Source of the DNA: an uncultured bacterium
GTDB taxonomy: Bacteria; Cyanobacteriota; Vampirovibrionia; Gastranaerophilales; Gastranaerophilaceae
Length of the DNA stretch: 53,592 nt
Assembly: GCA_902794035.1 (NCBI GenBank)
Contig: CADBFN010000009.1
Location: forward strand, 1-53,592
Direction of reading: 5' to 3'
Both the position numbers and the translations under genes were made by a program. Shown one piece after another: positions 53,221-53,592 of the stretch; within the stretch, counting starts at the first letter, position 1, and every line of letters begins with the position of its first letter. The notes under the pieces are model-generated. The model worked only from the letters and a program-made list of their open reading frames with translations. It was not told the DNA's origin and ran no database searches.

Positions 53221-53359
53221 TGTCATTACGAGGAGGGCAAAAGATTGCCCGACGAAGTAATCCAGCTTTTTATTACATTTATTTTAAAAAGTATATTTTA
53301 TTCTGATTTTGAATTGTTAAACGGCTGGATTGCCACGCCCTGACGGGCTCGCAATGACA
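53221..53359. mobile_element. MITE-like palindromic repeat (139 bp)
   Basis: It begins TGTCATTACGAGGAGGGC and ends GGGCTCGCAATGACA, an imperfect terminal inverted repeat, with an inner pair GTAATCCAGC / GCTGGATTGC. Such TCATTxCGAGG elements are widespread small intergenic repeats in many bacteria. It stops two bases short of the stop codon of the GC-rich minus-strand gene, so it was inserted immediately downstream of it. Confidence 0.75.
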
Positions 53360-53361
53360 AA

Positions 53362-53592
53362 TTACAAATCACCCACACAAACGGCCCTGAAGCTCGAAGT
53401 AGTGCGGATGCTGTGGCCCCGGTACGAGCTCGAACTGCGGAAGTACCGGCGGTACGCGTTGGTGGCGCTGAACTCACGGCCTGACCACAAGACGTACCAG
53501 GAGGAGCCTATGCCGGAAAAGCTCTCAGGTAGTTTGCTGAAATCTGCAGTGCCATCGCATCGCTTTGTTGAATCATTACAATTTGATTCTCC
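53362..53592 (-). CDS. 3' end of a FISUMP-like protein, candidate DGR variable region
   Basis: An uninterrupted minus-strand frame of 76 codons from the window edge to a TAA at 53362-53364; the 5' part is beyond the window. The product ends with FSATNAYRRYFRSSSSYRG and FRAVCVGDL, with LWSGREFS before. This agrees with the C-terminus of the Fib_succ_major (FISUMP) domain, a C-type-lectin-like fold found in adhesins, pilin-like proteins and diversity-generating retroelement targets. G+C over 53401-53460 is 39 of 60 by hand count, far above the genome, and many codons have the form NNC (CGC, TTC, AGC, CAC, ATC, TAC), as expected if AAC codons were randomised at adenines. No reverse transcriptase or template repeat is visible here. 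Confidence 0.6.
   Translation of the reverse strand, partial: GESNCNDSTKRCDGTADFSKLPESFSGIGSSWYVLWSGREFSATNAYRRYFRSSSSYRGHSIRTTSSFRAVCVGDL

What the first reader, a model, noticed from the sequence alone, without database searches (positions are those of the whole stretch)
53362..53592. Candidate diversity-generating retroelement variable region at the window edge
The minus-strand frame ends in a FISUMP/C-type-lectin-like domain. Its last 40 codons are GC-rich in an AT-rich genome, poor in coding-strand adenine, and full of NNC codons at positions where relatives often carry Asn or Tyr. That is the pattern left by adenine-directed mutagenic retrohoming. Fib_succ_major is, to my knowledge, among the domains reported as DGR targets. 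A GCCC-GTCA-GGGC mini-hairpin lies just after the stop, although it belongs to the repeat element there.
Basis: partly seen in the sequence, partly recalled or inferred. Interest (0 to 1): 0.85.

Follow-up and report, generated by a model that had tools for sequence, protein, structure and literature searches.

The report
Retroelement that diversifies switchable pilin proteins
The end of the window is a real hypervariable patch written by a gene-diversifying reverse transcriptase, one of at least thirteen such patches at the tips of pilus-like surface proteins whose genes also look able to flick on and off through runs of G, so one small gut-type bacterium may shuffle its surface in two ways at once.

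Summary
The window is a whole contig (C9) of a 1.79-Mb, 47-contig assembly. Its last 231 bases are the 3' end of a gene ending in a diversity-generating retroelement (DGR) variable region (VR, 53368-53507, minus strand). Elsewhere in the assembly lie the 140-bp A-rich template repeat (TR, contig C18), an Avd-like gene just after it, and an open DGR-type reverse transcriptase (contig C30). The window VR differs from the TR at 19 of 39 adenines and 2 of 101 other bases. Twelve more VRs occur in this genome. Targets are prepilin-type proteins with a C-terminal variable domain. Three things go beyond the finding. Twelve loci carry poly-G runs (10-15 G) in a leader, ten shown to lead to this family's prepilin motif, mostly out of phase, as in slipped-strand phase variation. 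A covarying structured RNA lies directly upstream of the TR, without an Rfam match. Similar sets occur in other genera of the family. Verdict: a new variant of a known kind, a multi-target DGR acting on apparently phase-variable type IV pilin-like proteins, probably in a Gastranaerophilales relative. Activity, phase switching and the lectin fold were not measured.

The parts
53362..53592 (-). 3' end of a DGR target gene (variable protein), 76 codons plus stop; 5' part lost at the contig edge
   Evidence: paralogues with more of the 5' part
53368..53507 (-). Variable region (VR), 140 bp, matching TR at G000:C18:1215-1354; 19/39 TR adenines changed, 2/101 others
53508..53592 (-). Conserved part of the variable protein upstream of the VR, shared with paralogues on C22, C21, C41, C38, C20, C11, C6
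53337..53357 (-). Dispersed repeat containing the GCCC-GTCA-GGGC hairpin (53337-53348); near the VR but follows only 2 of 13 VRs directly; not part of the DGR

Best explanation
The window ends in one of at least 13 variable regions of a single multi-target DGR. Shown by sequence: an open DGR-type RT, an Avd-like gene, one adenine-rich TR preceded by a conserved structured RNA, and VRs at the 3' ends of paralogous prepilin-type genes that differ from the TR mainly at its adenines. Inferred from the known DGR pathway: the TR transcript with its structured leader is bound by RT and Avd and copied into cDNA with random bases opposite adenine, and the cDNA replaces VR sequence, rewriting codon positions 1 and 2 of AAC-type codons in a C-terminal, C-type-lectin-like domain. 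The protein would be processed by prepilin peptidase and shown on a type IV pilus-like fibre as a hypervariable adhesin. Also inferred: poly-G runs in the leaders of the same gene family switch individual paralogues on and off by slippage, so a cell shows a changing subset of the repertoire.
For: VR/TR: over 13 VRs, 225 of 507 TR-adenine cells changed against 67 of 1310 others; two old VRs, C6a and C19, give 37 of the 67. TR adenines sit at codon positions 1 and 2 (19 + 19 of 39). VRs track their own species' TR: of 9 sites where this TR differs from that of sister genome G021, the window VR matches its own TR at 8 and the sister's at 0; the two G021 VRs examined match the G021 TR at 8. The one diagnostic mismatch is a site that is A in the sister TR and varies among VRs here. 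RT: 382 aa, open, best PDB hit 8ub7 at 1.5e-34. Avd: NF033474 at 62.4 bits. Targets: prepilin domain TIGR02532 over its cut-off in 3 of 3 scanned proteins that had their N-terminus. RT - poly-G pilin/VR - TR - Avd order on one contig in G263 (L152). Structured leader: 26 of 39 pairs with changes on both sides, 90.2% of cells paired against 74.5% shuffled, 0 of 500 shuffles as high. The RNA model hits 20 of 229 family genomes, all 20 of them among the 34 Avd-positive ones. Poly-G: by summing tract lengths, 34 of 35 overlapping G10 matches in this genome fall in 12 tracts; 10 of the 12 reach a prepilin motif before the contig ends.
Against: RT, TR/Avd and the window VR are on three contigs. The C30/C18 join is a 22-bp overlap that also occurs in other pilin copies. 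Avd is under its NCBIfam cut-off (62.4 of 80). C-type lectin fold not shown: profile hits weak and structure prediction switched off. No reads or strains, so current activity and slippage are unmeasured. The paralogue nearest the TR (C18a) lacks a stretch and is out of frame, by decay or misassembly. The window gene's own leader is beyond the contig, so whether it has a poly-G run is unknown. Poly-G runs in other genera are not confined to pilins: of 20 distinct runs examined 5 led to a prepilin motif, 12 did not, 3 ran off. 14 of the 34 Avd genomes are not among the RNA-model hits (unsampled or missed).
Confidence: 0.9

Rival explanations
1. A genuine DGR, but the poly-G runs are not a switch: they are hypermutable junk or encode a tolerated glycine stretch in a leader that is cleaved off.
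For: Poly-G runs occur in other contexts in other genera. One target in G021 (C19) and one in G243 have no run. Some leaders also hold dispersed repeats, in C38 in the pilin frame, so this stretch tolerates junk.
Against: In this genome each of the 12 runs lies after an ATG, lengths differ between loci (10-15), and at the 9 loci where the following frame leads to the prepilin motif it is in phase with the ATG at 1 and out of phase at 8. G10 matches in this genome are all but confined to these tracts (34 of 35).
Confidence: 0.3
2. Relic: the VRs were diversified in the past but the DGR no longer works in this lineage.
For: VRs C6a and C19 carry 22 and 15 non-A differences, C6b partly matches the sister-type TR (3 of 9 sites); the TR-proximal target C18a is damaged.
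Against: RT open with a YVDD stretch. C22 and C20 differ from the TR at 0 non-A sites (each has one 3-base insertion) while carrying 15 and 19 A changes, which suggests recent rewriting; 12 of the 13 VRs match the current own TR at 6 or more of 9 diagnostic sites.
Confidence: 0.08
3. Plain gene conversion between paralogous pilins, as in pilE/pilS-like cassettes, without mutagenic reverse transcription.
For: A large paralogous family with shared blocks.
Against: Differences are concentrated at A of one copy outside the target genes; RT, Avd and a conserved TR-leader RNA are present.
Confidence: 0.02

Closest known systems
Bordetella phage BPP-1 DGR (mtd / avd / TR / brt; its anatomy is recalled)
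   Same: RT related to 8ub7 (that this is the BPP-1 enzyme is recalled), Avd, adenine-specific TR/VR pair, VR at the 3' end of the target
   Different: One tail-protein target in the phage; here 13 pilin-family targets, Avd after the TR, RT (by inference) upstream of the first target, structured RNA before the TR, no hairpin shared after the VRs
Bacteroides DGRs diversifying type V pilus tip proteins (Macadangdang et al., cited in PMC12632263; I saw only passages of that review)
   Same: Pili as the thing diversified in gut bacteria
   Different: Type V lipoprotein pilins, not prepilin-type; no poly-G switch mentioned in the passage seen
Human-microbiome DGR target with Mfa2 and Fib_succ_major domains (PMC4159848; passages)
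   Same: Fimbria-associated protein with the VR domain at its end
   Different: Lipoprotein anchor-type protein, not a prepilin; one example
Cyanobacterial DGRs with remote variable proteins (PMC7517822; passages)
   Same: One DGR acting on dispersed paralogues with C-terminal CLec domains
   Different: Those targets are mostly predicted cytosolic; 'pilin' and 'pilus' do not occur in the text held
Multi-VR DGRs (PMC6642488; passages)
   Same: Single TR with many VRs is known (216 of 271 multi-VR DGRs have one TR); DUF1566 targets linked to putative pilin structures are mentioned
   Different: No phase-variable leader or type IV prepilin named in the passages seen

Membership tests
Diversity-generating retroelement | Reverse transcriptase of the DGR clade | tested here: met
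   PF00078 61.8 bits; best PDB hit 8ub7, E 1.5e-34, next 1.4e-9. No tree was built; that 8ub7 is a DGR enzyme and that an IGxxxSQ-type motif marks DGR RTs are recalled.
Diversity-generating retroelement | Near-identical TR/VR pair differing at TR adenines | tested here: met
   Window VR 19/39 A, 2/101 non-A; 13 VRs 225/507 A, 67/1310 non-A
Diversity-generating retroelement | VR at the 3' end of an open reading frame | tested here: met
   13 of 13 VRs end in VGD plus 0-2 codons before the stop; the frame of C18a has only 73 codons
Diversity-generating retroelement | Accessory protein Avd | tested here: inconclusive
   NF033474 62.4 bits, E 4.1e-17, full model length, but cut-off is 80; close to the TR here and in relatives
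Diversity-generating retroelement | C-type lectin (or Ig) fold around the VR | tested here: inconclusive
   Weak FGE-sulfatase, Lcl_C and Fib_succ_major hits below cut-offs in one paralogue, C29; structure prediction unavailable
Diversity-generating retroelement | Ongoing mutagenic retrohoming | not testable with these tools
   No reads or same-species strains; only indirect evidence from species-specific TR tracking
Diversity-generating retroelement | Hairpin/cruciform just after the VR, as in BPP-1 (recalled) | tested here: not met
   No hairpin shared after the 13 VRs (by eye). Recalled as a BPP-1 feature and not required of all DGRs.
Type IV pilin-like (prepilin) protein | Prepilin N-terminal cleavage/methylation domain | tested here: met
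   TIGR02532 19.2, 21.2 and 16.8 bits against cut-off 16.3 for C6b here, G021 and G005; Pfam N_methyl 20.8, 19.6 (both under 21.2) and 23.0. The window fragment itself lacks the N-terminus.
Fib_succ_major / FISUMP | Score over the curated cut-off | tested here: not met
   14.6 bits against 41.65 in one of five proteins; the window fragment was scanned with Pfam only (nothing)
Slipped-strand phase-variable gene | Homopolymer in the coding leader with lengths that open or close the frame | tested here: met
   12 tracts of 10-15 G; at 9 loci where the following frame leads to the prepilin motif, 1 in phase (C37), 8 out of phase; not established for C4, C12, C33
Slipped-strand phase-variable gene | Length variation within a population tied to expression | not testable with these tools
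   No reads

The most novel reading that the evidence does not exclude
A two-layer surface diversification system: poly-G slippage picks which of about 13 paralogous type IV pilin-like proteins a cell makes, while one DGR, using a TR carried on a previously undescribed structured RNA, rewrites the binding tip of each of them. It recurs with local variations across genera of this non-photosynthetic cyanobacterial family.
Probability: 0.55. Interest if true: 0.8.

Novelty: new variant of a known kind. Interest (0 to 1): 0.62.

Why it matters
If true, a small-genome gut bacterium joins targeted hypermutation and phase variation on one protein family, giving very large surface diversity while showing few variants at a time. 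It makes testable what these pili bind (phage, other microbes, host or food glycans) and why DGRs are kept. The covarying leader gives a handle for finding TRs in fragmented genomes and for asking how RT and Avd recognise their template.

Tried and rejected
The downstream hairpin as a DGR cruciform: rejected, it belongs to a dispersed repeat. A phage origin: TR DNA finds nothing among 50,697 phage records. RT relatives there are all under 60% identity (125 records). One viral contig (L132) holds a 36% RT; the pilin finds no viral relative. Defence RT families: 56 PADLOC models match, as expected for any RT; the 8ub7 match and the TR/VR evidence decide. Rfam: no match in L013 and L110. A tRNA scan of L013 found none. 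Joining the window VP to its 5' half: no locus held overlaps the contig end. Dropped rows: 6 of the 20 matches (E 0.008 or worse, 39 bases or fewer) were not counted as VRs; the strongest, on C3, was fetched (L018) and not examined. Own errors: the pilin rows used a wrong frame and are not used; the own/sister table had a TR shifted by one base and was redone; one search had wrong coordinates and was redone. The strict TR/VR filter missed the pair in G005 that is visible by eye. Loci L218-L223 were fetched and not used.

Literature (10 searches used). DGR + Gastranaerophilales 0 papers; DGR + Melainabacteria 0; Gastranaerophilales + phase variation 0; diversity-generating + prepilin 0; DGR + type IV pil + hypervariable 1 (listing only). 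DGR + pilin 10 (listing; passages read in PMC6642488 and PMC12632263). DGR + phase variation 23, of which 20 listed and none opened. DGR + Fib_succ_major 3 (passages read in PMC4159848). Two or more of four DGR terms 73, 15 listed (passages read in PMC7517822). Melainabacteria + pilin 6 (listing only). PMC8144416: passages, no 'pilin' or 'pilus' in the text held. The library holds open-licence PMC papers only, so absence there is weak evidence.

Full report
What was checked. The window is the whole of contig C9 of an assembly of 1,785,283 bases in 47 contigs, 94.5% complete. Its minus strand ends in a 76-codon open frame cut by the contig edge. The VR part is 62.1% G+C against 32.9% for the contig, with 25 NNC codons of 46.

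Template, targets and pattern. A DNA search of the assembly with 53362-53592 gave 20 matches: 14 long ones including itself, and 6 short ones of E 0.008 or worse that were not counted. Aligned, one of the 14, C18:1215-1354, is the adenine-rich template: no pilin-family frame leads into it and it reads as AAC-type codons. The other 13 are VRs. The window VR differs from the TR at 19 of 39 adenines and 2 of 101 other bases. Over all 13 VRs it is 225 of 507 and 67 of 1310, with two old VRs (C6a 22, C19 15) giving 37 of the 67. TR adenines sit at codon positions 1 and 2 (19 and 19, one at position 3).

Copying from the species' own template. The sister genome G021 (its contig C36 has the length of a contig of isolate RUG12020) has its own TR, with A at all 39 of the adenine sites and different at 9 other sites. 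The window VR carries the own-TR base at 8 of the 9 and the sister base at none. Two G021 VRs carry the sister base at 8 of 9. Across the 13 VRs here, own-TR matches run from 4 (C6b, an old copy) to 9 of 9. The ninth site in the window VR is T in this TR but A in the sister TR and varies among VRs here, which looks like the trace of an older template adenine. This is what repeated retrohoming predicts and plain paralogy does not. Nine VR-like loci in six other congeners, compared with this TR for want of their own, show 16-25 of 38-40 A and 11-23 of 100-101 other sites changed.

Machinery. One reverse transcriptase is found in the assembly with PF00078 (C30:707-1855, minus). It is open over 382 aa and its best solved relative is 8ub7 (E 1.5e-34, next best 1.4e-9). 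I recall 8ub7 as the BPP-1 DGR enzyme. An Avd-like frame begins 54 bp after the TR (C18:1409-1783, first ATG 1436; NF033474 62.4 bits, under the cut-off of 80). C30 and C18 overlap by 22 bp, but that 22-mer also occurs in other pilin copies. The order RT - pilin with VR - TR - Avd is therefore inferred here. It is seen on one contig in G263 (L152) and in two pieces in G021.

Targets. Paralogues reaching further upstream show what the window lost. C6b has an N-terminal prepilin domain (TIGR02532 19.2 bits, cut-off 16.3) and a long middle; the VR is at the C-terminus. G021 and G005 targets also pass (21.2 and 16.8 bits). The C-terminal domain has only weak profile hits, to FGE-sulfatase, Lcl_C and Fib_succ_major in paralogue C29, so the lectin fold is likely by analogy but not shown.

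Poly-G leaders. Twelve loci in the assembly match CCTC-G(n)-TAAAAGCC with n = 10 to 15. Ten of 12 reach a prepilin motif: eight directly, and C38 and C4 through inserted dispersed repeats, C4 in a shifted frame. C12 and C33 run off their contigs. At the nine loci where the frame after the run leads to the motif, it is in phase with the upstream ATG at one (C37) and out of phase at eight. Summing tract lengths, these 12 tracts account for 34 of the 35 overlapping G10 matches in the assembly. C6b carries an interrupted run and is also out of phase. The shorter pattern CCTCG(8) is found in 3 of 46 genus genomes: here, in G021 (two prepilin leaders with 10 G) and in G039 (not a pilin). One G021 target, C19, has no run. 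In other genera, targets with a TR-matched VR and a prepilin motif numbered five (G082, G243, G263, G064, G142), and four of the five have a run of 10-15 G in the leader. Against over-reading: of 20 distinct G10+ runs in loci returned (one of them a G021 tract already counted) only 5 led to a prepilin motif by my regular expression, 12 did not and 3 ran off. Phase switching is an inference; no reads were available.

Structured RNA before the TR. The roughly 150 bases upstream of the TR align between this genome, G021, G005, G243, G263, G064 and G007 and fold into a consensus of 39 pairs. I left out G061, G082 and G142, which aligned poorly. 26 pairs have changes on both sides, 90.2% of cells are paired against 74.5% in shuffles, and 0 of 500 shuffles reach any of the five measures; sliding the partners drops pairing to 35-44%. 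The structure was derived from this alignment, which favours it in the sliding control. A covariance model hits 20 of 229 family genomes with 24 matches, including the three left-out ones. By comparing coordinates, 22 of 24 lie beside an Avd hit and 2 (G260:C118, G117:C8) have none listed there. Four of the 24 are training sequences. Among 28 held sources, a match in L159 (E 2.1e-5) lies over 4 kb from its Avd. 14 of the 34 Avd genomes are not among the hits, whether unsampled or missed. Rfam has no match in the two loci given.

Distribution. In the genus, RT matches are found in 10 of 46 genomes, but only G000, G021, G005 and G025 exceed 50% identity, and the G025 stretch holds two stops. TR-like DNA is found in 11 of 46. 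Avd is found in 34 of 239 family genomes, 13 of 41 genera, one of them (G088) weak and broken. Of 20 Avd loci fetched from 19 genomes, 16 also hold the RT and my filter found an adenine-biased pair in nine. Seven of these look convincing (G061, G082, G243, G263, G064, G007, G142), G214 is cut by its contig end, and the pair in G065 and a second one in G064 look spurious.

Organism. Named relatives are isolate RUG12020 and Cyanobacteria bacterium SIG32.

Reading. The DGR verdict rests on direct sequence evidence. That the targets are displayed, that the poly-G runs switch them, and that the leader RNA guides RT and Avd are inferences. Multi-target DGRs (PMC6642488 and PMC7517822, passages) and pilus-related targets (PMC12632263 and PMC4159848, passages) are known. 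The combination with type IV prepilin-type targets and poly-G leaders, and the TR-leader RNA, I did not find in print (searches, open-licence PMC only; the 23 papers were not opened).

Noticed in passing
G000 contigs C2, C4, C11, C12, C24, C30 (two), C33, C34, C37, C38, C43 (L089, L123-L128, L012, L090, L091, L092, L022): Poly-G runs of 10-15 in leaders, ten of twelve shown to lead to the prepilin motif of the DGR target family; mostly out of phase, lengths differ by locus.
   Followed up: partly
L013:1058-1209 (+) and relatives (A4, model R1): Covarying structured RNA directly upstream of the TR, no Rfam match, beside Avd in 22 of 24 model hits.
   Followed up: partly
L022, L123 (C38, C4): Dispersed repeat elements inserted between the poly-G run and the prepilin motif, in C38 still in the pilin frame, giving an unusually long leader.
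   Followed up: no
L013:300-579 (C18a): The target next to the TR lacks a stretch conserved in its paralogues and is out of frame; decay or misassembly of the repeat.
   Followed up: no
G005 (L094, L095, L096): Three DGR-type reverse transcriptases (52-55% identical to the one here) in one genome.
   Followed up: no
G013, G020, G024, G036 (L112, L113, L119, L114, L115, L120): VR-like pilin-family loci in congeners where one search found no related reverse transcriptase: orphan or unassembled systems.
   Followed up: no
L132:4369-4985: A 327-kb viral contig with a DGR; a weak hit of the TR-leader model (E 0.66) falls between its Avd and TR.
   Followed up: no
G117, G142, G064, G243, G229, G263: About 180 to 420 overlapping G10 matches per genome, in pilin and non-pilin contexts among those looked at: poly-G contingency loci may be very common in this family.
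   Followed up: partly
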